This document shows positions 24,498-62,208 of a stretch of 64,000 nucleotides of DNA, one piece after another. How positions within the stretch are numbered: the stretch's first letter is position 1; every line of letters starts with the position of its first letter. The position numbers were made by a program, and so were the translations under genes. The notes beneath the pieces are model-generated. The model saw only the letters and a list, made by a program, of their open reading frames with translations. It searched no databases and was not told the DNA's origin. The DNA is from Cristatella mucedo (taxonomy: Eukaryota > Bryozoa > Phylactolaemata > Cristatellidae): contig WPIO01000015.1 of the NCBI GenBank assembly GCA_009760855.2, forward strand, positions 3,732,001 to 3,796,000, given 5' to 3'.

Positions 24498-24554
24498 TGA
24501 GCGGAGAAGCCGGTCAGATCAATGCGGAGCAGACGAGAGATGCTGGCACAAAAG
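24498..24554 (+). CDS. Large gene, exon 1 of chain 1 (candidate)
   Basis: 57 nt after 'ccattgtag' and before G|GTGACA, phase 1 to 1. It reads (V)SGEAGQINAEQTRDAGTK and joins in frame to the next exon as ...DAGTK-E-LTAQEEL. No ATG is present in frame, so it must be internal. The acceptor is mediocre, hence moderate confidence. Confidence 0.4.
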
Positions 24555-24786
24555 GTGACAGTGGCAGCCCCTCACTTCCCTCCATGCTGCAGCTGGCTAT
24601 GCAGGCACTGCAGCTAGCTTGCACTCACGCATGTGTAGAGCCCACTCGTGCCTCGCCGCCGCGCCCCCTCCCCACCACCCGCACCACCACATTGACAACA
24701 CAAGCAGCGCTCTGGTTCTGGCGGCGCGCTCATTCTCCTCCCGCTCGGTCTTGCTCTCCACTCTCTCTTCTTGCCGACTCTTGCAG

Positions 24787-25827
24787 AACTCACTGCGCAG
24801 GAGGAGCTGCGCCTGCTGCTTCAAAGCTGCAAGACGCGTGAAGAGGCTCAGCGGCTCACCGCCGAGTTCCTAAAGAAAAGACGAGAAAAGGAAAAGGGTG
24901 GCGACAAGGCCTCGGCTCAGCCGCCGGCAGCAGCAGCCGAGCCTGCGGCCGACGGTGCCGGCATCGGAGAGGCAGTCCAAGATGGCCGGAGCGGCCAGAG
25001 AGCCAAAGTGCCGTTGGGCGCGGCAGATCGCCAGAGCGAAGGCGGAAGCGGCTCAGCTTCCGGGGCCGCTGCCGCTGCCAGCGGCGACGGCGCCGACGTC
25101 GGCGCACAGAATCGACCTAAGCAAGAGGGTGCAACCAAGACGCCCGAGGGGGTGGCTGGTGGGCAAGATGGAAGTGGGCAGCCCGAATCCGAGACCGCTC
25201 CCCAGGAGGAGAGCGCAGCCACGCTCGAAGCTGAGTCGACAGGTCCGCCGAAGCCGGGCGCGGCTGCGGCGGCCGCTGCCGCTTCCAGGAATGCTGTCGG
25301 TGCCGGCGTGCGGAGGCTTCAGTCGCGGCAGCCGTTGCGGCGGTCGATGCAGCCAGCTGCCGGCAAGGGCGTCGGGGCTGTGGACGCGGTTGGTGTGGTT
25401 GTCGAGGAGGCGAAGGCTTCGGCCGAGGCCTCTGGCAGCGAGGGCGCGACCGAGGCTGCAGCCGCCAGCGACGTGGCTGCCGGTCCGGTTGGCGCTGTGA
25501 AAGTGGTGCCCAAGCTAGCCTCGCTTGTCAACAGTCCATATGCCTTAGCTCTGCGCTGGGGTGCGAGCAATGCCAAAGCCGGCAGGCAGGCTGCAGCTGC
25601 AGTCAAGAGGGTGGGCGATAAGGCTCATAAGGACGACAACGACGCCACCTCGGCTGCAGCCGGTACTGCCGACATCTCAGCAGCGGTCGCCGATGCCGAT
25701 GGCAGCACTTCCGGCACTGCGGGGACGGACGAACCGTCTCCAGCTGGAGCAGCAATGGAGACTGCCGAACAGCCGAATGCAGCAGCAGCAGCAGCAGCAG
25801 GCCTGGAAGCAATTAGCGAGGCTCCTG
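24787..25827 (+). CDS. Large gene, exon 2: helical module plus Ala/Gly-rich sequence
   Basis: Acceptor 'ctctcttcttgccgactcttgcag', donor G|GTGAGC, phase 1 to 1, 347 codons. The N-terminal 35 residues form a charged amphipathic helix (LTAQEELRLLLQSCKTREEA, then an EFLKKRREKEK tail) that is duplicated in the exon at 43,105. The rest is low-complexity Ala/Gly/Ser/Gln-rich, with basic patches ('RRLQSRQPLRRSMQ'), a hydrophobic/basic stretch (PKLASLVNSPYALALRWG, about 25,509-25,562) and a GCA-encoded Ala run near 25,780. No signal peptide or membrane segment and no recognised domain; likely a mostly disordered scaffold-type protein. The reverse strand is open only because the codons are GC-rich. 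Confidence 0.8.
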
Positions 25828-26059
25828 GTGAGCAGAGTTTGTTTTTGTGTTGCTGTTCTTGCTCTTCTGTTAAGTTTACTTGGCAGGCCGGTGTTGTCAC
25901 TCGATTCCAGATCGTCAAAAACTAGACAGATTGCGTATGTCAGCGGCTGTTAAAGATGTGCCCGGCGTTGCGCAGCAACCGACCGATAGAAGGCAGTGTT
26001 TGGAGAGAAAATGAACGGCGCCTACCTGTGCAAGCCTACGATGCCGTATTTGGGAGTAA

Positions 26060-26800
26060 TAATACTTTTCATGCTAGGACGTTTGCATAGCACCCCGAAA
26101 GAAATAAATCTCTTCCCAGGAACTTGGCACAAGCTAGAAAGTAGGCCTGGCCATCGCTTTGATATTGCAAGCACAGTATCAGTACGTAAAAGCACACAGA
26201 GGACACATCGAGTTAGTGTTTATATTTTTTTTCATGTCGTCAAGTAAGGGGATGGCGTGACATCAGTAAGGAGTGAGTTCCAGGCTTTGGGAGCATGTCA
26301 GATCAATTCAAGACACGATGGTCTCCAAAGGATTTGACACTGGGTAGAGGCACAGCCAAACGATTTGAGTCAGATGAACTGGTAGAGCATAGTCCGATTT
26401 CACGGCATTTTACATAGGCAAGCCTGGCCAAGAAAATGAAGGGACCTAAAAGTGAGCCACTGATCGAATAATTTGATCTTATTTTGACTGAAGTGTTAGT
26501 GCTGCATGTCTGTGGCAGTGGTTTAATGTGACAGTCAAGACAATTACGCCTGACAAGCAGCACTGCAGAGTTTTCCACCGGCTTCGCGAGTCTATTTGCT
26601 AAAAGGCAGTAAGATCTGTTGGTAGTAAGTCGCAGAAGTCTAGCGGTAAGTAGCAAATGTAAGGACCAGATTCGTAGCGTTATCATTGTCTAAGGAAGCC
26701 TGAATCTTTGAAATGCTACTTAGCTGAAAGTAGGCCGACTTGAACGTGAAGCTGATATAGTCATCTAGTGAATAGTCATTTTGAAGCAGAACACCGAGAT
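26060..26800 (-). mobile_element. L2 LINE 3' part, inverted, in intron 2
   Basis: Complement of the tail ('catagcaccccgaaagaaat'), the 3' UTR, and the protein end up to about 'TVKSAYFQL' ('ctgaaagtaggccgacttga' near 26,725). It lies wholly inside an intron of the large gene, in antisense orientation. Confidence 0.65.
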
Positions 26801-27239
26801 TAAAAATGCTTATTTTACCTTATGATTTTTTACCTTGTGATTTTTCAGCTGTTTCTGCTTTACAAAAAAGTGTTTTTTCAGGAGCCTACATTTGCAGGCA
26901 TGTAGTGCTGCAATGGGAGCTCGTCGGTAGACGTGTAGGCGTTTTATTCGCTCACACTGTAGGAGTCAGCAAAAAAATTTCTTCATATCCTCCAGGTGAT
27001 GCTTCTTTATCCCGATTGGGGGAATAATTGACGTTGCTCGTCTTTCTAGCTTGATTGCTGTGCTATATTTGTTGATCTGTGGTATCCTGCAAAAGCTAAA
27101 ACCTACAAATCGGCAGCATTCTACAAGGCTTCTACTGTCTGCTCCAAGTTATGTATGTGCCTTACAATCTATTTAGTCGCAGCATTGGTGAAAAGCTGGC
27201 CGACAGCTGTTTAAATCAGGAACTGACTTTCGACAGTGA

Positions 27240-27583
27240 TAGTGAACTCTTGTAATGATTCTAGTGTTAGGAAACCTCAAAACCGTCGGTGACCGTGCCT
27301 TTAGTTCATATGCTCCCAAATCTTGGAACTCACTACCGATACACGTCATAACGTCCTCTGACATGACGACATTTAAAAAGAAGCTTAAAACGCACCTTTT
27401 TGTTACAGCATTTGGTGGTCTTTGGGACTCGTTTTTCGTGTGCATGTACCTAATTACACTGTGTTTGCTGCTTGCGGATTTTAAAAGCAATAACTTTGTA
27501 AGGCTTTCTATACAGCATCTGTAAAGTGCATAGAAAGAGATTCAGTTCAAAGAGGGCACCGTGCAAATGTATTATTATTATTA
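27240..27583 (+). mobile_element. L2 LINE 3' fragment in intron 2
   Basis: Last protein codons ('ggtgaccgtgcctttagttc', 'ccaaatcttggaactcacta', giving a DRAFSSYAPKSWNSL block), then the 3' UTR and the tail 'gcatagaaagagattcagtt' with ATT units. Confidence 0.75.
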
Positions 27584-27816: not shown

Positions 27817-28287
27817 AAGCAGCTGAAAATTCACCGAAAGCAGAGGCTGCAATTGAATCTGTACAGTTTGCCACCATCGGCCAAAGTAAAGATGATGCGC
27901 CGTCTTTGCGGCTGAGCGTTCAGGACCGCACTGCCCCTGCTGCTGGTCCTGTGGTGATCGACGAAACCAAAGGGAGCAATGCTGCCACGGAAGCCAAAGC
28001 TGTCCGCAACTCCAAACGGGCATCTACCGTTAGTAGTAATGCTCCATCGAAAGCTCCGATCACGAGAGTGCCGCCTAAAGCGCTTGTCGTTGCTGGCAGC
28101 AAGGACACTCGTCGGGGACCCAGTCAAGGAGGCTCAACCCTGAAGCTCGACCTCGCGACAAAGTTAGCAGAAGTGAACGAGAACGTTGCCGAGTCAACCA
28201 CCAACAAAAGTAGTGATAAAGACGTTCATGTTGAAGAAAACTTTGCCTCGGATCGTGAAGAGTCAGCTGCAAGAGAAGGGACAACAA
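27817..28287 (+). CDS. Large gene, exon 3
   Basis: Acceptor 'acctttattaaaacag', donor ACAA|GTGAGT, phase 1 to 1, 157 codons. Junction with exon 2 reads ...EAISEAP-E-AAENSPKAEAAI. The sequence is less Ala-rich than its neighbours, rich in Lys/Ser/Thr, and has a short helical stretch (TLKLDLATKLAEVNENVAE). An in-frame TAG at 28,293 lies just past the donor, so splicing or termination must happen here. Confidence 0.7.
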
Positions 28288-30214: not shown

Positions 30215-30856
30215 ATGCTGGCGAAAATACGGAGCCGACAGCAGCCACCAGCAACCGGCTGGCACCTATCGCGAAGGAGACGCTCGATGGAAGCCGAGCC
30301 TTAGCGGATGGCAGAGGCACCCACTTGCAGACGATGCCTGACGCTGGATTTGGTGCTGCGACGGAACCTGCTGCCGCTGCTGCCGATACCGCTCCAGCCG
30401 TATTGAGCGAGGCGATCGACGGACAGTTGACTTCAGTTGACGCCACCATTCTACTGGCCGCTGGCAATGCTTCTAAAGAAGAAGGTGCAGGACAGGCGCC
30501 AGTAGCAACAGCTCCAGGCGGAGCGCAGGCGGCGGTTGCTGCTGCTGCTTCGCGACCGGCCGCCAGAGCTCCGAAAGCGGCGAGGCCAAGCGGAGAAGCC
30601 AAAGTGTCGCTGGCCAAGCTAGTCAGTCGCCGGGAAGGCCGCAAAGACAACGAGCCACCCGGAACGGAAGCCGCACCACTGCAGCCAGTGCAACAGGAAG
30701 GAGCCAGCAATAGAATGACCGGCATAGTGAGAGTCGCCGACGCGCCGAAGACTGCCAACAAGGTGGCGATTGCCACTGGCAGGCAGCAGCTACAGCCGGC
30801 CAACGCTAGCTTAGTCGGACCGACCGCCGACGCTGCCAGTGGATCTAGCCCAGCAG
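30215..30856 (+). CDS. Large gene, exon 4
   Basis: Acceptor 'cgctttgctgttgggatag', donor GCAG|GTAGTG, phase 1 to 1, about 214 codons; an alternative phase-0 acceptor exists at 30,330 ('acttgcag'). Ala/Thr/Gly-rich with the short motif AKVSLAKLVSRREGRK (about 30,598-30,645), which recurs almost unchanged in the next exon. Junction to exon 5 reads ...SGSSPA-G-ASDGEPKP. No domain recognised. Confidence 0.7.
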
Positions 30857-32041: not shown

Positions 32042-32608
32042 GAGCAAGCGATGGTGAGCCGAAACCGCTTGCCGTTGACGTTTCCCGGACCTTGCCGCTG
32101 CCTCTATCTCAAAGTGTCGAGTCGCCAGACAGCATCAGCACGAACTCGCCTCAAAATCAAGTCGGCTCCTCAACCGTTGCCGCTGGCCCCGCCTTGCCAC
32201 CAGCTCACACTGCTGCCACGGCGCCTAAGGGAGATGCAGAGAATGCTGGTCTCAAAGAGAGCGAAGCCGGCAAAGTTGTGCATTCGGCAGCCCCCGCCGC
32301 AACTGCAAATGCTTCCCGCCCCAAAGCGCCGGCAGCGAAGCGTGCACCCAAAGTCTCGCTGGCCGGGCTCGTCGGCATCAAGGGCGCGTTCAAAGCTGGC
32401 GTGCCAGTAGCCGGAGGAGAACTGCTGCCGCCACCTGGTGACAAGGCTCGACTGGCTGTCGTCATTGAAACCGGTGGCGACGCACCGACGACCGCTCAGC
32501 AGGCGGCGGACGCTCGCCAGAAAATCAGCTCCCAGGGTCACGACCTGGCTAAGAATGCAGATATGGCATCAAGTGTGCCAGCGACTAGTCCCAGACCAGC
32601 ACCGGAAG
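32042..32608 (+). CDS. Large gene, exon 5
   Basis: Acceptor 'gccaaatctttacttgaacag', donor GAAG|GTGAGT, phase 1 to 1, 189 codons. Ala/Pro/Gly-rich with the conserved motif PKVSLAGLVGIKGAFK (about 32,347-32,397), clearly related to the motif in exon 4. Ends SPRPAPE and joins V-KLASATAG of exon 6. A long GA microsatellite begins about 20 nt into the following intron. Confidence 0.75.
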
Positions 32609-34648: not shown

Positions 34649-35098
34649 TCAAGCTAGCCAGCGCCACAGCCGGCGTGGCTGTCGTCGGCTCTGCCCAGGC
34701 GGCCTCCCCGGCGAGGGCGCCTCCGGTTGTGACGCAGAGCGTTGGGCCTTCGGGTGGCCATGGCCAGCGCACTGCTCAGTTATCTGACGGAAGTGCGAAA
34801 TCGTCAGAAGCCGCTGCTGCTGCCGGTGCAGTGCTCTCAGCTCCAACCAGAGCAGGGCCTCCGGGACCTGGAGTGGCAAGCCAGGCCGGTGTGACATCGG
34901 TGGCTAACCGTCCAGCGAGTGCCTCCGTCTTGCCATCTGCTGCAGCCACGGCTGCCGCTGCTTCCGGCAGAAACTTGCATGGCGGAGCAGAGCAAGCAGC
35001 CGTTGAGCAGAAGGAAAATGGTGGCCATGGCTCGAAAGCAGGAGATCTGGCAGAGATTGAGGAAGTGTCCCTAGCGGACACTTCGACTTTCAGCACTG
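34649..35098 (+). CDS. Large gene, exon 6
   Basis: Acceptor 'ctctctttctgtcgctgcag', donor ACTG|GTACGC, phase 1 to 1, 150 codons. Ala/Ser/Gly/Val-rich, ending in an acidic stretch (DLAEIEEVSLADTSTFST). The following 132-nt intron has no stop in frame, so intron retention would also give protein. Confidence 0.65.
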
Positions 35099-35230
35099 GT
35101 ACGCCGCAGCTATGGCTGCTGCCACCGCTGCCGCTAGTGGAGTGGTTTCGGTCGGCGGCAGGGACCTCGACTGCAGCTCGTGGGCTGACCGCTGATTGCC
35201 CGCCGGCCTCACGCTCACCTTCCGTTGCAG

Positions 35231-35530
35231 CTCGGGTCTCGAGGCTGCTCAGCAAGCCTAGCGTCGCCTCTGGATCAGTCCGGGGCATCAGTCCCGTTAG
35301 GAAGTCGCCACAGCAGCAGCAGTCGCGCGAGGATGCAGGTGGCGTCAGACTGCCTCCGCCACCACCGCCAGTCGAGCCCGACAGCGTGAGCACCACCGCC
35401 AAGCGATCTGCCTGGGGATCGCAGTCCAGCCTTGCTGCCGCCAGCGTCGCTGGCTCGGCATTGGTGACAGTGCCACCTGCGAGTGGACACACTGCCGCAG
35501 CGGCAGCCGTGGCAGCAATCGACGGACAGA
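35231..35530 (+). CDS. Large gene, exon 7
   Basis: Acceptor 'cacgctcaccttccgttgcag', donor CAGA|GTAGTG (alternatively GCAG|GTTGGG at 35,539), phase 1 to 1, 100 codons. Starts with a basic/hydrophobic motif (RVSRLLSKPSVASGSVRG), then four consecutive Gln codons, a seven-proline run (RLPPPPPPPVEPDS) that could bind SH3/WW-type domains, and an Ala-rich end. Confidence 0.65.
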
Positions 35531-35640
35531 GTAGTGCAGGTTGGGCTCGACTGGCCATGCATCGGGCTGCTTTTGAACTAGTCGATTTCGCTTTCAGTGG
35601 CTCTCACCGGCACCTTGCTGCAGCAATCTTTCCTACGCTG

Positions 35641-36952: not shown

Positions 36953-38182
36953 GTCTCTCGACGACGGCCGCGACGTCGCCGAGGGTAGCCGAAGGGAGCT
37001 CACTCGAGCTCCGGCAGGATGCGAAGGGAGCCGCCGTCGACGCCCGGTCGAGTCGCCGTGCGAGCGACGCCGACCGAGGCGCTCCTCTGCAGCATCGTCG
37101 GCCGAGCGACGGATCCGTGCCACGTCCGGATGTAGCGGCCTCCGTGGCAGTCTCTGCTGTCAATGCTGCTGCTGTCAGCAAAGACGAAGTGTCGACTGTT
37201 GCGACCGGCAGACCTGGTGGCGAGCCGCCGCCGGAGGCAGGCGCTACGGAGATAGCTGCGTCAGTGGTTGCGGTGGCTTCGGCAGACGTCAGCGTGGGCT
37301 TGCGCGATGTGCCGCCACCGAAGCAGCAGCCGGAGGAGGATACGCAAGATGCCCAGCCGCTTCCGGGAAGGCAGGGCAAGGTGGCGCGCAAGAGCCTCCG
37401 AGTTATAGCGGGCAACCTGAACGCCTTTCGGCGCCTCAGCCTGGCTCCCCCACCGGCGACGGCAGTCGATCAGGCAGCTCCGTCCGGGTCCAGAGTCGTG
37501 GCCGCTGCCGCCGGCAGTACCAAGGACAGGAGCGGGGGCGCAAACATCTCCGAGAATGCTGTCGCTGACCCGAAAAACGCCGAAACAGCGGGGCAAGCTT
37601 TGCAGCGAGCCAGTCTCGGAGCCGGAGGCAGCCGAGGCGATCTGAGCCCGGCTGACCGGGGTTCAGTCGTCGGCCGAGATATGCTACGCCCCGGAAATGA
37701 CGAGGCAAAGCCGCCAGGAGCAGACAGCAAGGCCGACGGCGCTGGCGCAAGCGTGCAGCTCAGCGGCGGGACAACGGCCGCCGGTGAATCTGATCGAGTA
37801 GGAGCGGCGAAGCCGCTTGGCTCAGAAGACGGGGCCTATGACAGCCATGAGACAGCTGAGCTCGGCGTGCCGCATACGGCCGCCGCGGAGGCTTCCGACG
37901 GTGGTGTCGCCAACAAGGGCAAGGATGTCCCCGCAGCGGCCGCCACCGGTAAGACGTCGGCGGCGGCCGGCCCGAAGAAGATGGGCAGATTCCAAGCGGC
38001 AGTCAAAGCTGCCTCTGAAGCTTCAACCACGGCGCCGGATCGGAAGCAGCAGCAGCAGCAGCAGGCTGGCGACGGCTCGAAGGCGGATATAGCAGAGGTC
38101 GCGGCTGGCCGAGCTCAGCCGGCGCGCCGACCATCGCGGGCCACTGCGAGGAATCAGCTTGCTGGAAACTCGACGGCTGCCG
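36953..38182 (+). CDS. Large gene, exon 8, the largest exon of chain 1
   Basis: Acceptor 'atcgcgggttccag', donor GCCG|GTAAGC, phase 1 to 1, 410 codons. Ala/Gly/Asp/Ser-rich and low complexity. Recognisable points: a basic cluster near the start (SSRRASDADRG), the motif VARKSLRVIAGNLNAFRR (37,381-37,434), PKKMGRFQAAVKAASE (about 37,972-38,020), a run of seven Gln codons (38,045-38,065) and a basic end (ARRPSRATARNQ). No domain or membrane segment seen. Overlapping long frames on the opposite strand and in frame 3 are GC shadows. Confidence 0.75.
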
Positions 38183-39670: not shown

Positions 39671-40088
39671 GCAATTGATTCAGTACAGGGTGATAATCAA
39701 TGTTCCGAGTGTTTGCTTTTTGTGCTTTGCCATGCTTGCTTAAGCGTGATACATTGCTTAGGCAGGATGTCTTGGTTGCCTATTGCGAAGTGAGTCGTTA
39801 AACACCTGTATAGAGACTTGGCAATTTCCGTGCACTGTTTAAAAGAAATTTTTCCCCATACTGCAGTCATTTCTGATTCGTTTTGTTCATGGCATTATTT
39901 TTTGTACGAGTGCGATAGTGTTTCACACTTCCTAATCCTGGTTCGCGACCAACGCTGCTGAGCGCTTTAGCTGTGCGTGAGCTTGGTTTAGAAAGCCTCT
40001 TCTAGAAGCTGCATTGCATACCTACATACTGCACTCGTTGTGGAAATAGCGTTTGACCAATTGCCTACTCGATATGTCTTAGGCACAG

Positions 40089-40235
40089 AGGTCAAAACGC
40101 TCAAAGAGAGGGAATTGCAGCGGCTTAACAATCGAAACGCCGTAGATGGTCTAGCGGAAATGGCAGCAGAGGAAGAGGACCAAGAGCAGAAGCAGTCGAC
40201 GTCTGCCGTGGAGGCGATATCGATTTCTGCTGGTG
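40089..40235 (+). CDS. Large gene, exon 9: charged coiled-coil segment
   Basis: Acceptor 'gtcttaggcacag', donor GGTG|GTAACC (or three bases earlier), phase 1 to 1, 49 codons. Reads EVKTLKERELQRLNNRNAVD then an acidic stretch (MAAEEEDQEQKQ). The heptad-like spacing of Leu and charged residues suggests a short coiled coil. Confidence 0.6.
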
Positions 40236-40977: not shown

Positions 40978-41346
40978 GAACGTCGCCGGACGTCGCCGCC
41001 ACCATGCTAGCCGAGCATGCCGCCGAGACTCGCCCTCAGCCTTCGACTTCGCTTGCCGCCACTGCCTCGGATATGCAGCAACAGGAGGCGGACGACGAGT
41101 TTGACCTCAAAGCGCTTCCGGCGCCGTCGACGCAGAAGCAGCAGCCGGCGCTGCAGCAGTCGGCTTCATCATTCGTTACCAGCCAGACCTCCCTCTCGTC
41201 GTCTGCCACGTCGAAATCCAAATTCGGCCTGTTCGGCTTCCTGCGCCGTCGCAAGGAAGCCGAAGAGCAGCGCAAGCTGGAGGAAGCAACGAAGAAGGCG
41301 GAAGAGGAGGAGCGTCGCCGAGCAGCCGAGGCCGCCGCCAAAGCCG
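40978..41346 (+). CDS. Large gene, exon 10: motif plus long charged helix
   Basis: Acceptor 'caatctatgttgcag', donor GCCG|GTGAGC, phase 1 to 1, 123 codons. The first half is Ala/Gln/Ser-rich. The second half has the motif KSKFGLFGFLRRRKEAEE followed by about 30 residues of alternating Lys/Arg and Glu (RKLEEATKKAEEEERRRAAE), predicted to be a continuous charged alpha helix or coiled coil. The junction with exon 11 gives ...AAAKA-G-LSPQEEL, so the charged helix leads straight into the duplicated helical module. Confidence 0.75.
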
Positions 41347-43104: not shown

Positions 43105-43292
43105 GCCTGAGCCCGCAGGAGGAGCTGCGGCTTCTCCTGCGCAATGCGAAATCCAAGGAGGACGCTCAGAAGATCGCTCAGGAGTTTCTCCTCCGGAAAA
43201 AGGTAGAAGAAGAGGCAAAGTTGAAGGGAGCCGCCGCAAAGTCTCAGCCGCAGGTGGACATGTTCCTGAAAGTGCAGCGGGCGCAGCAGCTG
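43105..43292 (+). CDS. Large gene, exon 11: second copy of the helical module
   Basis: Acceptor 'cgtcgcgtcgctgcag', donor CTG|GTAAGT, phase 1 to 0, 62 codons. Opens with LSPQEELRLLLRNAKSKEDA followed by QKIAQEFLLRKKVEEEAKL. Aligned to exon 2, 16 of the first 28 residues are identical, and in both exons the QEEL codons start exactly 11 nt after a phase-1 acceptor, which indicates duplication of an exon or its 5' part. Ends in VDMFLKVQRAQQL. Confidence 0.8.
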
Positions 43293-43673: not shown

Positions 43674-43784
43674 GCGTTGATGGAGGAGCAGAAAGTGATC
43701 CTGGCTGCTCGGCGAGACAAGGAGAACGAAGAAAGAGTCAAGGCGGGCTTGCTGCCGCTACCTCAGATCGATCTCAATGCCCCG
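43674..43784 (+). CDS. Large gene, exon 12: helical linker
   Basis: Acceptor 'tgtccgcgcttgcag', donor CCG|GTGAGA, phase 0 to 0, 37 codons. Reads ALMEEQKVILAARRDKENEE then RVKAGLLPLPQIDLNAP. The charged helix continues from exon 11, so exons 10-12 together could form one extended helix of more than 100 residues. Confidence 0.75.
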
Positions 43785-44021: not shown

Positions 44022-44052
44022 ATCCCGTCTCTCGACACCGCATTCGACGCAG
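44022..44052 (+). CDS. Large gene, exon 13 (31-nt micro-exon)
   Basis: Acceptor 'ttgcatcctgttttag', donor GCAG|GTGAGA, phase 0 to 1, encoding IPSLDTAFDA. It exactly corrects the phase between exon 12 (ends phase 0) and exon 14 (starts phase 1), which supports it despite its size. Confidence 0.55.
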
Positions 44053-45037: not shown

Positions 45038-45320
45038 GTAAAAAATCCTCGCAGCCGAGTAAAGGTGGCAGCAAGGGTGCGCAGCCGCTGGCCGTCATCC
45101 TTCAGCAGAAGAAACAGGAGGAGCAGGCGCAGGCCGAGGCCGCCGCAGCTGCTGCGGCAGCGGCGGCTAAGGCCGCCGCACCTCCGCCGGTCGTCTATGG
45201 TGCAGGCTACACGGACGAGGACCTGCTGATCATGGGCAACGCGTGGCTGGACGGCGAAGGCGCTCAGCAGGCAGCCGGCACCGAGAGCCGGGCCTCGCTC
45301 AACTCTGTCAGCTGGGACGA
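45038..45320 (+). CDS. Large gene, exon 14
   Basis: Acceptor 'ttaatatgtatcttcag', donor ACGA|GTGAGA, phase 1 to 2, 94 codons. Gly/Ser-rich start (KKSSQPSKGGSKGAQPLAVI), a Gln/Glu helix into a run of 11 Ala codons with one Glu-Ala lead-in, then a well-defined, probably folded or binding segment VVYGAGYTDEDLLIMGNAWL. Ends NSVSWD and joins D-FLDRLMSRR of exon 15 across the phase-2 junction. The next stop would otherwise come immediately (TGA at 45,322). Confidence 0.75.
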
Positions 45321-45592: not shown

Positions 45593-45861
45593 CTTCCTCG
45601 ATAGACTCATGTCAAGGCGGCCACCTCCGGCGCCCAAGGTGTCCATGAAGGAGTTTACAGAAAAGATGCTGGGTCTCCGGCCTCCTACATTTTTCCCCTC
45701 CTACAGCAACCTCAGCACGGACAGCGCGTTCTTCCCGCGCGACCTCTCCGACCTGGATAGGGACACCACCCCGGATGTGGCGACCCCGGTGCCACTCAAG
45801 ACGCCCACGCCGCCGCCGACTCCTCCGCCAAAGCCGGCAACGCCTCCGCCGGCTACTGTGG
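45593..45861 (+). CDS. Large gene, exon 15: Pro-rich segment
   Basis: Acceptor 'cacgttctgctttcag', donor TGTGG|GTACGT, phase 2 to 1, 90 codons. After FLDRLMSRRPPPAPKVSMKE comes a low-repeat, conserved-looking stretch (EKMLGLRPPTFFPSYSNLST, DSAFFPRDLSDLDRDTTPD) and a TP-rich tail (TPTPPPTPPPKPATPPPA), candidate SH3/WW or profilin ligands. Confidence 0.75.
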
Positions 45862-46073: not shown

Positions 46074-46174
46074 ACCTGTTGAAAGCCATAAGGAATCGCC
46101 TGCTGAATAACAACGCGGCAGCAAACCAGAATGCGGAAAAATTGCCCGGCACTGAGGTTCCAGCCGTCAATGTG
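46074..46174 (+). CDS. Large gene, exon 16
   Basis: Acceptor with a long CT tract ('ctctctctctctcttcag'). Reads DLLKAIRNRLLNNNAAANQN then AEKLPGTEVPAVNV. Donor used here is GTG|GTCAGT (phase 0), the same GTCAGT type as at 52,908. A stronger-looking GTAAGC four bases later would put exon 17 out of frame. Confidence 0.6.
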
Positions 46175-47749: not shown

Positions 47750-47813
47750 CAGTCCGACGTCGCGCCACCGATGACCGTCTCTCAAGTTGCTGCGGTGCAA
47801 ACGGCCGCTGCAG
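47750..47813 (+). CDS. Large gene, exon 17
   Basis: Acceptor 'tatttcgctcgtttgcag', donor GCAG|GTAAGC, phase 0 to 1, 21 codons: QSDVAPPMTVSQVAAVQTAA. Joins exon 18 as A-LKKKRKK. Confidence 0.55.
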
Positions 47814-48111
47814 GTAAGCCGCTACTTCGACCGCACCCTGGGACAGACTGCATTACTGCTTGCACGTTACCCGTTACGTTACGTTACGTCACTCGAAACC
47901 AAGCGCACGCATGCGAACCGCTTGCATTGCGAGTGCATGCCGATAGCTTGCTGGAGTCGGCTCCGTCTGCGCCGTGCGGTCTGGCCGGGGCGGAGCTGCA
48001 GGGCAGAGCTGCTCTCGCTTGGCGCCTCGCTCCTGCTCATTCGGGAGAGCGGCGCTTGTCGCTGCGCCGGAGCAGCGACAAGCGCTGAGCGAGTTAGCTC
48101 TCGCGTTTCAG

Positions 48112-48254
48112 CTTTGAAGAAGAAGCGCAAGAAGAAGCGCAAGAAGCCGGAAGCGGAAGCGGCGGCTGCTGGCCAGAGCGGTAGCGAGGCGAGTCGGCAT
48201 GACCGAAGTCGCGCAGCCGCCCCTGTTGGCCTAAGAAACTGTCTCGATGCTTGA
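48112..48254 (+). CDS. Large gene, exon 18 with basic C-terminus and stop
   Basis: Acceptor 'gttagctctcgcgtttcag', phase 1 entry, stop TGA at 48,252. Starts with a dense Lys/Arg cluster (LKKKRKKKRKKPEAEAAAAG), a likely nuclear-localisation or nucleic-acid/acidic-surface binding element, and ends SRAAAPVGLRNCLDA. A weak donor AGCG|GTAGCG (48,180) in phase 1 could instead link onward to chain 2, so the stop may not be used in all transcripts. Confidence 0.55.
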
Positions 48255-50532: not shown

Positions 50533-51877
50533 GTTGCTAAAGAAGCAGAGGAGAAAATGACTGAGAGGAAAAGCAATACCAACATTGAACAAAGCTCATT
50601 TGCTATCACAGAAACTGTGGCAGCAACTAGTGCAGGACTAGCAGCTTCTACTGCACCCTTACAGCCAGCAGCATTAGCCATGGCACAGGCAGCAACTGTA
50701 CCACCAGGAGCCCCTGCGGTCGCAGTGGCCGCAGCTGTCACATTGGCCGCAGCTGTCACAGAGTCAGAAACGATCAGCGCGGCAACCACCACTGTACCAG
50801 CAACAGGTGTTTTGCAAGCAACAATGGTTTTGCCTGCATCTACTCTTGTGGTAGCAGCAAATGACGGGACAGTGAAAACAGTCACTCCAGCAGCAGCTGC
50901 AGCGACTGTCACATTATCAAATGCTGCCGTGCCAGCAGCAGCAGCTGCGTCATCAGTGACTCCTGCTCCAGCAAATGCTATCGTATCGTCGACATCCGCC
51001 ATCTCGGCTACAACAGACGTCCCAGCAGCAGGTCAAGCAGTGGCTGTCGTCCCTGAAGCAGGTGTCGTGCAGCCAGCGGCTGTCGTCACACCTGCAACAG
51101 CAGCCATAGCGGCAGCCACTGTCGTTTTGGCGCCGGCTGCCACTTCACCTGCAACCAACGTCTCACCAGTAACCAGCGTCTCAGTAGTCGCAGCTTCAGC
51201 TGCTCCTGATCCACTGCACGAGAAAGGGAAGCAGGCTGCTGCTGCTGCTGCTGCAGCGAAGGTACCTCCGAGCAACGCTGCATCAAGAGCCTCAAGCGTT
51301 GCAGCGCTGCCCCGGGCCGAATCGCGCGGCCCGCTCGCTGCGCCGGAAGCGGCCGCTGCCGGCGCAGCGACAGCAGCTGCCCGGACAGACGGCGTGCTGC
51401 CGGCGACTGGCAGCCAGTCGCCGACCATGCAAGGCAGCAAGCCGCCGTCGGCGAGGCTCAGTACACCCGAGCCTGCCGCTAGCAGCGTGCAGGCAGCCGC
51501 TGCTGCTGTCATCCGAGAGTCGCCACCGAGCTCGTCGGCAGTGGTGGCAGCAGCGGCAGCCTCAGGTGCGCTTCGGCCGACCGCTACGACCGCTTCGAAC
51601 GGACGAAAAGACGGAGGAGGAGGAGGAGGAGCAGCAGCAGCAGCAGCAGCAGCGGTTGGCTCGCCTGACAACCGGACTGAGCCGGCGGCGGCTGCCGCTG
51701 CTGCCTCGGCAGGCATTGCCCGACCCGAGCCTGAGGCTTCGGCGGCTCCGGCTAGCCGCTCGTCGACGGAAAAGATTTTGCTGCTGCACAGCGAGGTAGC
51801 CACCGGCGCCTCAGCAGAGCGAGCATCGAGCGCAGACCGAGGTGACGACAGCGCCACGGGGCCACGTGCCAAGTCTG
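50533..51877 (+). CDS. Large gene or tandem partner, chain 2 exon 1
   Basis: Acceptor 'ctgcactcctaccacag', donor TCTG|GTAAGT, phase 0 to 1, 448 codons. After VAKEAEEKMTERKSNTNIEQ it is almost wholly Ala/Val/Thr/Ser/Pro, then Ala/Gly/Ser-rich with Gly6-Ala runs (about 51,612-51,652). An ATG at 50,557 with a good context (AAAATGA) could instead start a separate protein. An 18-bp in-frame duplication (AAAVTL repeat) lies at about 50,726-50,761. No signal peptide or domain. The 301-codon minus-strand frame is a GC shadow. Confidence 0.7.
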
Positions 51878-52011: not shown

Positions 52012-52907
52012 GCTCCCGATCAGCCAAAGTCAGCTTTCACGGATCGACCACTTTCTCCCATGCCGAGGAGACGCTTGGAGATCGGATCTCGAGCGACGTC
52101 GCCTGGCCCCAAGCGCCGTCCAAGGACGTCGCCGTGCTCCACGACTCGCATGCGCCGCCATCGGTTACGCACGAGACCGAGGCTCAACAGGACGGCAAGC
52201 AGACGAGCAGCAGGGCTATGGCTGCAGCCGCCTCGACGTCGCCTACCACTGCGGTTGAGCCCCCTTCAGCGTCGTCTCACTCGTCAACTGTCGTCTCGGC
52301 AGCGGCTTTGCCGTCGGTGGCTGCTGCCACTGGAGTGGCAGCAGCCACTGCGGCAGCTCGCACCACTTCGGAGGCCGAGCTGCAGGCGGCAGTGGCAGCG
52401 CCGGCCAAGCGCAAGGGCTTGCTCGGCCTGTTCCGCCGGTCCAAGCAGCCGGAGCCGGTGCCCACACCCATCCTCGAGGAGCCGACGCCGGGGCCGTCTC
52501 GCGCCACTGCTCACAGTGACGACGGAGCGGTCAGAGAGGTGCCGCCCCCGGTCGTGCCCTCGCTGCAGGCGTCCGTCAGTGGCGGCGTGAAGCCGTCAGC
52601 AGGCCAGGCTGCTGCCGTCAACGGCAGCAGCAAGCCGGCGCCCGTCGGGGCGTCGACGGCGACGCTGGACACGAGCGTTAGTGGTAGCATTGCAAACAGC
52701 AAGGGCCGGTCGCGCTTTGCGTCTCTCCTGTTTGGCTCCCGCCGAGACAACAAGGCTCCGGAAGCAGACGGCGGCAGCAAGCAGGCTGCCGCCGAGGCTG
52801 CCGCCGCCAAGGCGCCCAACACGATCATCATCAAACGAGGCGACAAGGTGGCTCTCGTTGACACCATCAAGCTGCGGCGTTTGCTTGCCAATCTCGACGA
52901 GGGCCAG
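52012..52907 (+). CDS. Chain 2 exon 2: two basic/hydrophobic motifs and a structured end
   Basis: Acceptor 'cactctcggcttcctgcag', donor CAG|GTCAGT, phase 1 to 0, 299 codons. Junction reads ...RAKS-G-SRSAKVSFHG. Contains KRKGLLGLFRRSKQPEPVP (about 52,408-52,464) and RSRFASLLFGSRRDNK (about 52,708-52,755), both like the motif of exon 10. The last about 30 residues (TIIIKRGDKVALVDTIKLRR, LLANLDEGQ) are not low complexity and look folded or helical. Confidence 0.75.
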
Positions 52908-56640: not shown

Positions 56641-57730
56641 ACACTAGTTTCAGTCTCCTCCTACGACCACGTCTGTTCACCACAATCGATTGGCTGTTCC
56701 CATCTATCAACTGATGGCTTTTTTTCGACAGAAGGCGTGGATTTACTCACTGAAACTCAGTTTCAAATCCACGCGCAAGGAAGATCAGTATTCGTTCTCG
56801 TTCGCGAGGAAGATCCTAAGATCCGGTCTCCGTTCTCAAATCCTAAGACTTCTATTTCAGCCAGATAATATTGCTGCTGTTTTGATGCTAATTACGACGT
56901 ACTTTCTGATTCAGCCATGCTTCACTGTTGTTTCCAGCAGGCATACTGAAAGCCGAATAAGCTTATAGTACACCCGAGATAACTCTCCAGCACAGCACCT
57001 GCTTGTTTTTAAGGCTTTGCAGAATTGCACAAGGATATTCACAAACTCACACGTGCGGCATCGAAATGTGCACTCCTGCTCTTCAACCAATGGGTCGCAA
57101 GTCTCAGCCAAGACTTGTTGAGGGGCCTACAAGCATGTACGGCCTTCAGCTTGTTGAATTAGGTTGAAGGGCTTACACTCTTGCCACTGATTGGACAACA
57201 CAACCCTCTCAGTGGTCTTAGCCGTTGTTTCAGTCCTTGTTTTTGGCTACATGCGCTTTTCATTGCTTTTTTAAAGTCAGATATGATGTTGCCTGTTTCA
57301 CTTGCATAACCGGCATGTCTTCTTCGATAACCTTTGTTCGTTCATGCTATTTCTCCTTACATTTATTGCCTTTGTTGAAAGCTGTGTGCTGTATTTATAT
57401 TAACTCGGCGTCTACGGTGCAGTCAGTGCCCACCATGTTCTTGTTCAAATAGGACTGCCAATCAGCCTTATGATCGTAACAGGAAGCCATGCCCTGTTTT
57501 TCCTAAAGAAGTGAATATTTCTTGTGGTAATGCTGCAGTCAGTCCGGGTTTTATCAAATAAGTGGGTAAATCACCGTCTTTGACTGTAAGCACGAGGTTG
57601 TTGGGGGATATAATAATCGAGCATATGAAAAACAGTTTCTTCTCGATAATTCGGCTGACCACTTACATTTAGATGCTTTATTAGGTCAGGGTGAATAAGA
57701 GGGCTCAAAATTGGATCTAGTAAAAGATAT
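56641..57730. other. Intron sequence, no exon recognised
   Basis: Has an inverted repeat GCGTGGATTT...AAATCCACGC (56,735-56,774) and several 60-90-codon frames without splice context. No repeat family assigned. Confidence 0.4.
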
Positions 57731-57988
57731 ATGGCTCACGATGGTGTGGGTATTTGTTTCTGCGATTTGAGCAGAATAAATGACGACATGCAAGTTAAAC
57801 TGTTCGAGTGCACAAACCAAACTAACACGGCAGTAATATATCTGCCTACTCACATTTATGCACTTCAATGTATTTTTGGTGAGGCACAAAATGCTGAGAA
57901 CCCAGTTTTCATGTGTACTGAATTTTCAAGTGTACTGAATTGTTTTCACATACCATTGAAAATAGTGATTTGGGAGATACAAATTTAA
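57731..57988 (+). other. 85-codon ATG frame, significance unknown
   Basis: An ATG-to-TAA frame with mixed composition (MAHDGVGICFCDLSRINDDM...). A short internal duplication 'gtgtactgaatt' is present. AT-rich context, no splice or family evidence; could be chance. Confidence 0.15.
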
Positions 57989-58756
57989 GACTCATTCAAT
58001 TTAAAGTAGAAAAGCTGGCAGATGATAAGGTCCTACTATATAAGCTATAATAAGATAAGCTCCTAGATGAATGGGTTCCTACGGTCGATTGTCAAGCACA
58101 TAAAGGCTGCATTTCTGTCAAAAACTCAAAGCTGAAGTGTGTGATCAGCTGATGATTGTATGACAGTGTCAGATGACTGTCTTGGGGTGCTCACTTCTTA
58201 TAAGTCCAAGCACGCGATGGTAATATTTTGACCACTGCACGAGCTCATGTCATGCCCGTATTTAAAAATGGCAGACAAAGGTTTGGCATGTTCCATTCAC
58301 CACTCTCTGCGTTTTCTTTCGGTGGTTGAAGAAACATGCCTTCGGCCTATTATGGCTTATTTATTGAGCTTAAATCTTAAAGCTTAATCAAAGCTGTCCC
58401 ATGATTTTAGGCTTTGTGTCTTTAAATATTTGCTATTTTTTATAGCAAATGATAAAGTACATGAATAGTCATCCAGTTCTACTCGGGGGGGATACGCAAA
58501 AGACATCGGTATTATTACTAGTGTAGTGAAAGCAGTTACAAGGCGACCTAGCATGTTGCAAGTGCTCGAGGGCTGCATCGATGTCATGCTTTATTCAAGC
58601 TCAGTATAATGCTTAAGGTATCCATATGAGCAGTCAATATGCATCCGGATCGAGTTTACATCAGCCAGTACATTGCCTTCACGATGCTTGCTTTTTCTAA
58701 GCAACACGGAGACAGCAGGTTGATGTCATACCGGGATTGTAAGCATATCAGAGTGA

Positions 58757-58790
<34 letters not shown>

Positions 58791-59214
58791 GGAGGAAAGA
58801 AAGAGAGAGAGAGAGAGGGAGAGGGGGAGAGACAGAGACAGAAAGGAGCATGTAAGTTTGGGCTGGATTTCTACTTATACTTTCTTATATTGTTAGATAA
58901 GTTGAAGCTCTAGCTTGCGTTTGGCAAATCGCTTGCTGTCACTGTGTTGATCAATCTTTACCGGTCACGTTTTACTGAATGAACGCACAAGTCTGCTTGT
59001 ATATGTATTGCATGGCTTTTTTTGGCTATTTGGCGAAGGTCTCTTTCTGTGCAATACCAAAGCAAGATAAATGCCCAATTTTTGCTGCCGTCACAGACAG
59101 GCAAAATAAAAGCTCTTCGCCATGTTTCAAAGCTCAAATTCATTAGGACATCCCAAGCTTTGGCATAAAATCAAGCATCACTTTGACAAAAATGTTTTGT
59201 CCTCACTTTTAAGT
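57989..59214. other. Intron sequence, no exon recognised
   Basis: AT-rich; includes an impure (GA)n block at 58,756-58,842. No coding signal. Confidence 0.45.
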
Positions 59215-59335
59215 TAATAAAGGCTAGAGGTTATTTAACAGCCTCAGTTTGCCCTCTTGCAGGACTTGAACCCACGACCTTAGTGGGAAAAGGCAAGCAC
59301 TTTACCTCTGGGCTAAGACCCAGGGACTTCGTTGG
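59215..59335 (-). mobile_element. Family-B SINE head fragment
   Basis: 'caggacttgaacccacgacc' (B box complement) and 'ctctgggctaagacccaggg' (head complement), preceded by 'ttatttaacagcctcagttt' of the body end. Confidence 0.55.
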
Positions 59336-60700
59336 CTTACTCCTGCCTACCTATCCAAATTGCTACTCCCCAATCAGGCTAGTACTCATACAACCCACTG
59401 GTCTGACACAAGTCGTTTAGCTGTTGTAGCTCGAGCAATCTCAAATCGATTGGGTACCGTGCCTTTAGTGTTAGTGCTTCTAAAGCCTAGTAGTCATTCT
59501 CTACTGATCCGTGACATTCCCTGACTTGTCGGTATTTAAGAAGATGCTAAAAACGCACCTGTTTCTCCCAACATTAGCTGAGTCCATGTGTGCATTGTCG
59601 TTCTTGTGCTTGTGCTGGCTGAAACTGTGTGATCACTAATTAATTGATTCGCTTCTTATAAAAAGTACGTAGACATTTTTTTAATTCTAGAAATATCATG
59701 AAATGTCTATTTTATTGCTATATTGATTCGGGCTAGTAGCTCATGATATGACTGCTATATTCCAGCAGGCATAGAAATACTGAGACAACACGTACACTGT
59801 TTGAATTGGAAAAATACTAATCAAAAACCACACCAGTAATCAAGGAAAATTTGAATTATGGCAAGCCTCACTGATCAGTTTTATGTTCCACCTTTTCACA
59901 ATTATAAATATATAATGTCATCTCCAAGCACAATTTTTTTAGTCTTTCATACATATATATATAAGCACAATGTAGTCTTTCATTTTTATGCAGATGACAA
60001 GCAGCTGTCTTTGAACTTCTATCATTCTCTGCCTTCTAGGATCTAAAACTCTGTCAGCTCCCGTTCAGGATGTATTTATGACACTGGCACTTACACAGCA
60101 GCAAACATTCTCAAATTGAATGAAAGTAACAGCAACTTACTAGTTGAGGTCGAACCACGTGTTACCTAGTGGCTAGAAAATCAACCCAACCATTTTATTT
60201 CAACCAGCTCTACTCGTAGGTTTTTTGTCTTCCTAATAAGACGATTGCAATATATTAACAAATTTGCTAGGTAGAATTTATTTGTTATAGAAGTTGTAAC
60301 TGCACCATTACAACACTGCTCACCAATCTGCATTGGCTACCTATCAAGCACGATATTGACTTCAAGTTTCTATCACTGGCGTCAGATCACCAATCTGCAG
60401 TCCAATCCAGTGATTGTCTTGCTAAGGCCCACCTATCCGAATCAGTTTCACATCAGACCTTCTGCCTCATCACCAAATAGTCTGACTCTGGTCGATTGCT
60501 TTGGCCCCCATTATTTTAAATCCTGTAAATACCTTGCCTGCAGCTCCTATGCTCCCAAAGCCCGGAGCTCACTGCCGACTTACATTGCCTCAGCTTCTGA
60601 TGGGACGACATTTAAAAAAGATGTGAAAAAACCTACTGATTCCTAACTGCCATATCTCTTTTAGAGTGGATTTCTTTTTGTGTTTTTGTGTGTTCAGAAA
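59336..60700 (+). mobile_element. Two old L2 LINE fragments
   Basis: 59,336-59,660: C-terminal codons and 3' UTR ('gcacctgtttctcccaacat'). 59,930-60,700: RT-region traces ('catttttatgcagatgacaa' for HFYADD), then C-terminal blocks ending about 60,640 ('tcctatgctcccaaagcccg'). Confidence 0.65.
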
Positions 60701-60854
60701 CTGTGCGAGTCGTGTCCAAGGGTAAGAGAGCGAGCGATATGCTTTTGTATAGTGCACATTCTCGCGAACATATCTTTTTCCTGTGCTATTTGAGTGCTCA
60801 CCTTACTTTCATGATTCAGTCTATGCCACTACCAAGGGTTCTACTTAAAAAAGG

Positions 60855-61020
60855 TTAGCTGATTTAAAAGCCTCATTTATATAGCTGCAGAGAAGCCGTA
60901 ACGGCTATCGCCACCGCTTGCAGTGGGCAGTATAGAATCGCCCACTGTAGGAACCGAATCCACGACCCGGGACATGAAGGGCAAACACCTTACATCACGG
61001 GGCCAAGATCCAGGGGCACC
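60855..61020 (-). mobile_element. Family-B SINE, inverted
   Basis: 'gccgtaacggctatcgccac', 'gggcagtatagaatcgccca', 'ggaaccgaatccacgacccg' (B box complement) and the head complement to about 61,020. A 25-bp tandem duplication of the flank ('cccagtggtcgtgaggattg') follows. Confidence 0.65.
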
Positions 61021-61263
61021 CAGTGGTCGTGAGGATTGTCCTACCCAGTGGTCGTGAGGATTGTCCTATGTGCTTTTGCTAATTTGTCTATGCATGATTC
61101 TTGAATGCTTTTGCATGCTTGTCAAAGCATGCCACCTTGCTTGTCATCGACCCTTTGCTTATTTATTTTCATGCAAAGTCATATGACGCCAGGATGAAGA
61201 TCTAGATCTCTTAGAGTGCTATGCAAACTTTATTATTGGTATCGTCATGCGCTGAACTTGCAG

Positions 61264-61393
61264 GTGACGTCCACGGCAGTTGTTCGAGACGGGCCGAGGG
61301 CCACAGTCGGTGCCGCCGTGACCGACAGTGGCGCCAGCTTGACGAACATTTCGCGGTCCTTACAGATTGGCAAACAGTGGCGAACGAAAAGCG
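61264..61393 (+). CDS. Chain 2 exon 3
   Basis: Acceptor 'tcatgcgctgaacttgcag', donor AGCG|GTACGA, phase 0 to 1, 43 codons. Entry phase fits the end of the 52,012 exon across the 8.4-kb LINE-bearing intron: ...LANLDEGQ-VTSTAVVRDG. Reads TDSGASLTNISRSLQIGKQW and ends WRTKS. A second open frame overlaps but would not fit exon 4. Confidence 0.55.
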
Positions 61394-61718
61394 GTACGAC
61401 CCCGTGTTCTCCGGCTCGGCCAGTGCATGCTGCTTTATTTAGCCCACGCGGGAATGACACCTCAAGTTGTGTGACCGGCTTAAACTGGTGACGTTGTCGA
61501 GCCTTTGGTTTCTGATTTGCTCACTTTCGTAAGGCCGGCCTGATTCTCAATTATCCTGATCCTCACCCTGCTCGGGTGCCTGACACCCCGATTTCGTGCA
61601 TCCTTACTCACTGGCTTCATTTTCTGAGCCATCTGAGCTTAGGGTGATCTGTTGGGCAACTGCTCTGTGTCAACTGATGTGTTGTGTTGTTGTTGCTGTC
61701 ACTCGTTCCCGAATGCAG

Positions 61719-61830
61719 CCGAAAAAAGGGAGGAGAGACTTCGGCTGCAGGATGCTCACAAGCAGGTCACGGACAAGCTTTTCAGTGCCAACAACCCGTT
61801 CTCGGAGTACAGGAACCTGGAGACGGACAG
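61719..61830 (+). CDS. Chain 2 exon 4: charged helix
   Basis: Acceptor 'cgttcccgaatgcag', donor ACAG|GTGGGT, phase 1 to 2, 37 codons. Reads (A)EKREERLRLQDAHKQVTDKL then FSANNPFSEYRNLETD. Non-repetitive and probably conserved; the first half is coiled-coil-like. Confidence 0.7.
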
Positions 61831-62117
61831 GTGGGTGCCTACAGGCTGTCTCGGGTGCTGGCCAGGCCGCAGAAGCTAAGTACGAGTGCCGGACAATGGC
61901 CGTGCCTTGTCGAGCCGGGCGGTTTTCCCAGACGACTGGGCTCAGATTGGCCAATGATCAATGCTGCTGACAGCAAGGCGATAATCTCTTGGGAAATTTT
62001 GTCGTGCTGTTTTCGAGCCGCTACTTGAATTATCTGAATTGAATTATCTAATGTCTAGCGTTCATTTGCGTGTACGCAGCTCCGGTTAAAAATTAAATTG
62101 CTCCCTTTTTATTGCAG

Positions 62118-62208
62118 CAAATTCTTCTACGACACCAAGTCGTCAAGAGCATCGTCAGTGGCTTCAATTCTTTCCGAAAGTACGGCGGAGCCGACAGCTC
62201 AGCTCAAA
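62118..62208 (+). CDS. Chain 2 exon 5, gene continues beyond window
   Basis: Acceptor 'gctccctttttattgcag', donor AAA|GTAAGA, phase 2 to 0, 30 codons: (S)KFFYDTKSSRASSVASILSE, STAEPTAQLK. No stop before the donor; the remaining exons must lie past the right edge, or the read-through frame ends at 62,346. Confidence 0.65.

What the first reader, a model, noticed from the sequence alone, without database searches (positions are those of the whole stretch)
24498..62208. A giant, undescribed-looking Ala-rich gene assembled by splice phase
From sequence: 23 splice-bounded segments on the + strand join without breaking the frame within each chain (18 in chain 1, 5 in chain 2; about 9 kb of coding sequence). 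Most of the first 11 exons are symmetric phase 1-1. The protein alternates long low-complexity Ala/Gly/Pro/Ser stretches with short conserved-looking helical or motif islands. From knowledge: symmetric phase classes are typical of modular proteins built by exon duplication and alternative splicing. No known domain was recognised. Inference: a large, disordered scaffold with docking motifs.
Basis: partly seen in the sequence, partly recalled or inferred. Interest (0 to 1): 0.9.

Follow-up and report, generated by a model that had tools for sequence, protein, structure and literature searches.

The report
Giant charge-striped disordered scaffold gene
This stretch of a likely invertebrate genome holds about half of a predicted gene for a giant, almost cysteine-free floppy protein whose electric charge flips sign at regular steps, a pattern that likely lets it gather other molecules into droplets, as some human nuclear proteins do.

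Summary
On the + strand 34 splice-bounded open segments, 24,787 to 101,335 (20 in the window, 14 in flanking DNA fetched from the same contig), join in one frame to a stop codon: 16,742 nt, about 5,580 residues, 2 cysteines. The first 8 exons are all phase 1-1. LINE relics in the span touch no exon (0 of 15; about 6 expected). No Pfam family passes its cut-off in any exon, and three protein searches found no relative. A predicted helical hairpin occurs twice in the gene (exons 1 and 9) and nowhere else found in the genome. The main new result lies outside the window: a 4.3-kb exon and its neighbour encode 29 charge blocks, 27 of 28 neighbours opposite in sign, with basic clusters about 112 residues apart in its second half. 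Treacle and Ki-67 repeats condense by this kind of pattern, but nothing here shows membership of either family. Best reading: a giant block-polyampholyte scaffold, probably nuclear. No transcript, relative or experiment supports this yet, the single-gene join is inferred, and the 5' end is missing.

The parts
24787..25827 (+). Exon 1 found (phase 1-1); starts with the first copy of the predicted helical hairpin (24,789-24,911). An upstream exon is needed but not found.
   Evidence: hairpin match
27817..28287 (+). Exon 2 (phase 1-1)
30215..30856 (+). Exon 3 (phase 1-1)
32042..32608 (+). Exon 4 (phase 1-1)
34649..35539 (+). Exon 5 (phase 1-1)
36953..38182 (+). Exon 6 (phase 1-1)
40083..40235 (+). 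Exon 7 (phase 1-1)
40978..41346 (+). Exon 8 (phase 1-1); Phe-rich basic cluster from 41,211
43105..43292 (+). Exon 9 (1-0); second copy of the helical hairpin
   Evidence: model of 62 residues, mean pLDDT 80
43674..43784 (+). Exon 10 (0-0)
44022..44052 (+). Exon 11 (0-1)
45038..45320 (+). Exon 12 (1-2); island near 45,200
45593..45861 (+). Exon 13 (2-1); island at 45,593. Acceptor 45,707 is an in-frame alternative with a better score.
   Evidence: single copy
46074..46174 (+). Exon 14 (1-0)
47750..48224 (+). Exons 15 (47,750-47,813) and 16 (48,112-48,224): doubtful or skippable in-frame pair; exon 16 carries a polybasic run from 48,117 and a weak donor
50533..51877 (+). Exon 17 (0-1)
52012..52907 (+). 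Exon 18 (1-0); island near 52,812
61751..61830 (+). Exon 19 (0-2) after an 8.8-kb intron; weak acceptor. Alternatives 61,719 (needs a further exon) and 61,766.
62118..62208 (+). Exon 20 (2-0), last exon in the window. The 14 further exons lie downstream of the window and are listed in the full report.

Best explanation
Thirty-four splice-bounded open segments (24,787-101,335; 20 in the window) join in one frame and are predicted to make one protein of about 5,600 residues with only two cysteines, whose largest exon alternates positive and negative charge blocks, about 112 residues apart in its second half; it likely works as a block-polyampholyte scaffold, probably nuclear, that would condense with itself and with charged partners through these blocks. 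Shown from sequence: the open frame and its phases, the charge alternation, the hairpin motif that recurs in exons 1 and 9, two polybasic runs, and that the three islands searched have no second gene in the genome. Predicted: the joining of all exons into one transcript, the hairpin fold. Inferred: nuclear location (from the polybasic runs), condensation (by analogy with treacle and Ki-67 repeats), and docking of clients by the ordered islands.
For: Open frame, phases and composition; LINEs avoid the exons. Exons 25-26: 29 charge blocks by the published definition, 27 of 28 neighbours of opposite sign (shuffles: 20.7 sign changes among 33.3 blocks on average), mean block area 256 against 110, spread of 35-residue charge 5.01 against 2.86 +/- 0.24. 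Net-charge lag of 114 residues in exon 25, r 0.48, reached by 0 of 2,000 block shuffles; 113 over exons 25-26, 0 of 1,000. Basic motif [KR]S[KR][DE][KRG] 7 times, all in exons 25-26, shuffle maximum 3 in 2,000. Positive blocks more alike than shuffles (1 of 300 reach it), negative blocks not (66 of 300). Polybasic runs [KR]5: 7 overlapping hits in 2 runs, shuffle mean 0.10. The same physical pattern makes treacle and Ki-67 repeats condense (PMC11996177, PMC9106583; passages).
Against: No transcript, no relative, no experiment. Left alone the finder cut the span into three genes plus two doubtful ones downstream, and the in-window part into three genes when trained outside the window; with costlier starts and stops it ran through, and beyond 101,335. 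Weak sites: donor 48,224 (-4.1), acceptor 61,751 (-1.8), donor 68,368 (-0.9). The 5' end is missing. The strong charge pattern is outside the window; inside it exons 1-6 show z 2.9, exons 17-18 z -1.0, exons 1-20 z 2.4. The first half of exon 25 is less regular (best lag 280). CDK-type sites (6 against 8.7 by chance) and RRxS sites (12 against 11.9) are not enriched, so phospho-control as in Ki-67 is not supported. Polybasic runs are not proof of nuclear location, and one of the two lies in a doubtful exon.
Confidence: 0.42

Rival explanations
1. A membrane-associated signalling scaffold that works like gravin (AKAP12) or MARCKS: Phe-rich basic clusters likely bind acidic lipids or calmodulin, and the C-terminal exons likely dock PP1 and perhaps PKA.
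For: Three clusters with 3 or more Phe in 10 residues, each flanked by Lys/Arg (41,211; 84,590; 92,487), shuffle mean 0.17, maximum 2 in 2,000. One strict RVxF-like site in exon 33, 0.07 expected.
Against: Basic-hydrophobic windows are only mildly enriched, 13 against 8.2 +/- 2.3, 14 of 300 block shuffles reach it. The PKA-anchoring consensus fits 41 places against 24.7 by chance and is useless in so Ala-rich a protein. No Pfam match to such families. The strict RVxF-like site is reached by 7% of shuffles.
Confidence: 0.2
2. A long cytoskeletal spacer or microtubule-binding protein: regularly spaced basic blocks would bind the acidic microtubule or filament surface and the acidic Ala-rich stretches would act as bristles.
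For: Regular basic clusters in an acidic Ala-rich background; giant neuronal and cytoskeletal genes often have giant exons (recalled).
Against: No Pfam match to microtubule-binding or other cytoskeletal families; polybasic runs that look like nuclear signals.
Confidence: 0.17
3. Two or three neighbouring genes rather than one: the in-window exons likely form one or two genes and the charge-striped exons another.
For: The finder splits the span; weak junctions at 48,224-50,533 and 52,907-61,751; long introns of 8.8 kb and 11.0 kb.
Against: All 34 exons join in one frame and exon 14 also joins exon 17 directly; the same very low Cys and high Ala run through both parts; exon 13 may share a motif with exons 19/20.
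Confidence: 0.16
4. Not coding: Ala-rich open frames could be an artefact of G+C-rich trinucleotide-like sequence.
For: An Ala-rich reading also appears on the other strand (reverse-complement score 456; 61 stops in the most open antisense frame).
Against: No internal stop against 61-138 in the other frames, Cys 0.06% against 2.7-6.7%; LINEs avoid the exons; sites chosen in one frame are mostly strong, 31 of 34 acceptors and 29 of 33 donors in the best tenth of all AG and GT sites, though the finder selects for this.
Confidence: 0.03

Closest known systems
Treacle (TCOF1), central repeat domain
   Same: Fully disordered, a row of diblocks in which a positive block is followed by a negative one (PMC11996177, passages; here).
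   Different: Treacle's acidic blocks are Ser/Glu-rich and its C-terminus holds a Lys-rich stretch; here the last exons are nearly neutral (exons 32-34 net +2, +2, +1). No match to the Treacle family model. This protein is nearly four times as long.
Ki-67 (MKI67), repeat domain
   Same: Repeats of similar length (122 residues, PMC10562473, passages) that become charge diblocks and condense (PMC9106583); many units in one giant exon (recalled for Ki-67; exon 25 here).
   Different: No Ki-67 repeat, FHA or PP1-binding family match in the exons; units here share only a short basic motif; CDK-type sites are not enriched.
NOLC1 (Nopp140)
   Same: Alternating basic and acidic disordered stretches (recalled).
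   Different: Its SRP40_C domain lies on another contig of this genome, and no such match is in this gene.
AKAP12 (gravin) and MARCKS
   Same: Large or Ala/Glu-rich, Cys-poor, with basic Phe-containing effector clusters (recalled).
   Different: No family match; the anchoring helix is not shown.

Membership tests
Treacle | Match to the Treacle family model (PF03546) | tested here: not met
   No match in the exons at E <= 1 nor in the genome; that genome search rang in no control either, so it does not show absence.
Treacle | Row of positive-then-negative charge diblocks in a disordered chain | tested here: met
   29 blocks, 27 of 28 neighbours of opposite sign in exons 25-26
Treacle | N-terminal LisH motif | tested here: inconclusive
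   No Pfam match in the exons found, but the 5' end is missing
Treacle | Lys-rich, strongly positive C-terminus | tested here: not met
   Exons 32-34 have net charge +2, +2, +1 over 86, 24 and 70 residues
Treacle | Ser/Glu-rich acidic blocks | not tested
   No count of Ser/Glu in the negative blocks was made
Ki-67 | Ki-67 repeat family match | tested here: not met
   No Pfam match in exons 25-26
Ki-67 | N-terminal FHA domain | tested here: inconclusive
   No Pfam match in the exons found; 5' end missing
Ki-67 | PP1-binding domain | tested here: inconclusive
   No Pfam match in the C-terminal 286 residues; one strict RVxF-like site, reached by 7% of shuffles; genome search for PF15276 did not complete
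Ki-67 | Repeat units of about 120 residues with charge diblocks | tested here: met
   Basic peaks 105-124 residues apart from residue 3990 to 4885; first half of the exon less regular
NOLC1/Nopp140 | SRP40_C domain in the gene | tested here: not met
   The genome's one match is on contig C634
AKAP12/MARCKS | Family match to WSK, MARCKS or RII-binding models | tested here: not met
   No Pfam match
AKAP12/MARCKS | Binding of PKA, calmodulin or acidic lipids | not testable with these tools
   Consensus for PKA anchoring does not discriminate here

The most novel reading that the evidence does not exclude
An invertebrate lineage evolved its own giant condensate organiser, unrelated by descent to treacle or Ki-67, in which selection holds the order, sign and roughly 112-residue spacing of charge blocks while the sequence inside them drifts, and a skippable exon pair with a polybasic run switches the protein's address.
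Probability: 0.22. Interest if true: 0.78.

Novelty: new variant of a known kind. Interest (0 to 1): 0.58.

Why it matters
Charge-block work on Ki-67 and treacle says that the pattern of charge, rather than particular residues, makes such proteins condense. An array of 29 blocks whose positive members share only a short motif and whose negative members share only composition is a natural test: if relatives keep order and spacing and swap residues, pattern itself is selected. It would also add a non-vertebrate case with no detected relationship to either family, and it shows that a giant disordered gene without domains can stay invisible to annotation by homology.

Tried and rejected
Basic-hydrophobic windows as a repeated membrane motif: 13 against 8.2 +/- 2.3 in block shuffles, 14 of 300 reach it; dropped as the main reading. 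PKA-anchoring helix in the last exon: the consensus fits 41 places against 24.7 by chance, and the PDB search gave weak, unrelated matches (best E 0.028). One basic peak per exon in exons 1-6: 1.1% by simulation at net charge 6 or more, but at 5 or more exons 1 and 6 have three each, so it depends on the threshold. A regular charge lag in exons 1-6: 10% of shuffles reach it. Upstream start: only one poor ATG exon ending in the right phase in 18.0-24.78 kb. First-pass boundaries 45,707, 61,719, 65,651/65,726 and 67,678 were replaced after inspection. An early joined model gave 52 stops after exon 18; the cause was the junction after 52,907, resolved. Motif tests were chosen after seeing the sequence, so their shuffle counts flatter them. 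Pfam matches below their cut-offs, taken as chance: SR-25, SAP130_C, HemY_N, TBPIP_N, FNIP_N, eIF3h_C, GFD1, LcrV, DUF5401 (E 7.8e-4, 18.1 bits against 25, in the coiled exons 22-24), AhpC-TSA_2, SCP_3. NCBIfam: one chance match in six proteins. tRNA and Rfam scans of the window: none. The two-helix model was not searched against structures: too small to tell. Literature listings showed no description of this gene; these are few searches of a partial library.
Full report
WHAT IS THERE. The window lies on contig C66 of an unnamed 572-Mb genome. Its first 24 kb show no coding signal and many LINE relics; from 24 to 54 kb G+C is 0.48-0.62 in 14 of 15 two-kb windows. Left to itself it cut the span into three genes and added two doubtful ones downstream. 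After inspection of the uncertain junctions my final model has 34 exons from 24,787 to 101,335, no internal stop, and a stop codon at the end: 16,742 nt, 8,936 nt of it in 20 exons inside the window. The first eight exons are all phase 1-1; 11 of 34 are.

EXONS BEYOND THE WINDOW (window numbering continued). Exons 21-24: 64,866-65,535; 67,805-67,944; 68,203-68,368; 71,867-72,060 (locus L005). Exon 25: 83,084-87,359 (L006, L007). Exon 26: 91,564-92,565 (L007). Exons 27-34: 96,155-96,431; 96,620-96,728; 97,818-97,893; 98,780-98,920; 99,551-99,763; 99,971-100,227; 100,795-100,866; 101,123-101,335 with the stop codon (L008).

IS IT MORE THAN CHANCE. In modelled exons above 140 nt (5,277 codons) the coding frame has one stop (the last) and 0.06% Cys; the other frames have 61-138 stops and 2.7-6.7% Cys (counted before the last boundary corrections). 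The final model has 2 Cys, 9 Trp and 18 Tyr in about 5,580 residues. The span scores 1,596, eight block shuffles 67-117, the reverse complement 456, the 64 kb upstream 3.7 and 52 kb downstream 4.0. The codon model was trained on these exons, so I retrained it on exons outside the window with a background from upstream: 12 of 20 in-window exons came back with both boundaries, 6 with one, 2 not at all, and the region was cut into three genes. LINE insertions give a test without a codon model: of 15 in the span (39 tblastn pieces in 104 kb; those in the span merged by hand) none overlaps an exon, 5.9 expected, none in 0.04% of random placements. It is not fully independent, since an interrupted exon might not have been called.

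ONE GENE OR TWO CHAINS. Exon 18 ends in phase 0. Two acceptors inside the same island, 61,751 and 61,766, fit phase 0. They are weak (-1.8, -2.1; 61,719 scores -0.4), so either one of them is used or a small exon of length 1 mod 3 lies in between (a 130-nt candidate at 61,264-61,393). Exons 15-16 hang on a weak donor; exon 14 also joins exon 17 in frame, which leaves 32 exons without an internal stop. The 5' end is not found: exon 1 needs an upstream exon ending in phase 1, and only a poor candidate exists in 18.0-24.78 kb.

WHAT THE PROTEIN LOOKS LIKE. Ala 22%, Ser 10%, Pro 9%, Gly 8%; 71% disorder-promoting residues, 42% low complexity. No Pfam family reaches its cut-off in any of the 34 exons, scanned whole or in part. 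Solved structures: two parts of the protein searched, only weak matches. Three protein searches found no relative: the first two scored the 7,995 and 7,982 candidates that share most words, where low-complexity words compete, and the third had one candidate. I take that collection to hold few animal proteins (inference), so absence there says little. In the own genome the exon 9-10 island matches only itself and exon 1 (E 4.6e-4); the C-terminal 286 residues match only this gene, in five places; the exon 13 island matches itself and one chance place (E 0.96). The shared start of exons 1 and 9 (44% identity; 57% of 28 residues, E 1.9e-5 in self-comparison) is predicted as two helices (mean pLDDT 80, two-row alignment). 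A weaker internal match links exon 13 to exons 19/20 (45% of 29 residues, E 0.018).

THE CHARGE STRIPES. Exon 25 (1,425 residues) and exon 26 (334) were tested with the block definition of PMC9106583 (35-residue window, area above 20; passages): 29 blocks, 27 of 28 neighbours of opposite sign, 14 positive, mean area 256; residue shuffles give 33.3 blocks, 20.7 sign changes and mean area 110 (maximum 187). The spread of window charge is 5.01 against 2.86 +/- 0.24. The net-charge autocorrelation of exon 25 peaks at lag 114 with 0.48; the highest value over lags 60-199 in 2,000 block shuffles averages 0.135, and none reaches 0.48. Basic peaks from residue 3990 to 4885 are spaced 116, 108, 124, 114, 105, 110, 111 and 107. 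The first half of the exon is less regular (best lag 280; second half 225, twice 112). A short basic motif, [KR]S[KR][DE][KRG], recurs 7 times, all in exons 25-26. Positive blocks are more alike than shuffles (z 2.8), negative blocks are not (z 0.76). So order and spacing of charge are kept better than sequence. Inside the window the pattern is weak (exons 1-6 z 2.9) or absent (exons 17-18 z -1.0).

HOW IT LIKELY WORKS. Treacle's central domain is a row of +/- diblocks that stabilise its condensates (PMC11996177, passages). Mitotic phosphorylation turns Ki-67 repeats into such diblocks and promotes condensation (PMC9106583, passages). PMC10562473 (passages) gives the Ki-67 repeat as 122 residues and finds that full phosphorylation of a single synthetic repeat abolishes droplets, so the sign of phospho-control depends on context. 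I infer that this protein condenses in the same physical way, with the ordered islands as client docks. Two polybasic runs (from 48,117 in the optional exon 16, and from 71,899) suggest the nucleus. CDK-type and basophilic sites are not enriched, so I claim no phospho-switch.

MEMBERSHIP. It is not filed under treacle, Ki-67 or NOLC1: family models do not match the exons, and the genome's SRP40_C domain lies on another contig. The resemblance is in how it would work. The missing 5' end leaves LisH and FHA open, and the genome search for the Ki-67 PP1-binding model did not complete.

ORGANISM. COI on contig C688 reads well with AGA/AGG as Ser and TGA as Trp. From recalled knowledge of mitochondrial codes and COI sequences this points to a protostome invertebrate, probably a lophotrochozoan; no call names it.

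Noticed in passing
53956-56402: A LINE with reverse transcriptase (RVT_1, E 7.8e-28) sits in the 8.8-kb intron 18, same strand as the gene; its frame is in two overlapping open pieces.
   Followed up: partly
7938-63994, and on to 102831 outside the window: Some 39 tblastn pieces related to this LINE lie across 104 kb, many of them in the gene-free first 24 kb.
   Followed up: partly
45593 and 45707: Two in-frame acceptors 114 nt apart for exon 13; the longer form adds an ordered-looking island of 38 residues.
   Followed up: partly
47750-48224: A 177-nt in-frame exon pair that carries a ten-residue polybasic run: possible skippable nuclear signal.
   Followed up: no
L008:6795-6866 (outside the window): A 72-nt phase 0-0 exon of 24 residues with an RVxF-like PP1 docking site (motif recalled).
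   Followed up: partly
L026 and L027 (contig C688); contigs C166, C83, C549, C299: A mitochondrial contig of 21,008 bases, 44.6% G+C in the 18,000 read, with COI; five further COI pieces on other contigs look like nuclear copies.
   Followed up: no
L009:5101-5817 (outside the window): A 0.7-kb simple repeat open in several frames, which the gene finder took as coding; not counted as part of this gene.
   Followed up: no
30168-30941, 34776-35603, 51033-51953 on the minus strand: Long antisense open frames opposite exons 3, 5 and 17: shadows of the Ala-rich coding frame.
   Followed up: partly
1827-2047, 32631-32854, 40392-40496: Long dinucleotide repeats: AC then AT, GA, TA.
   Followed up: no
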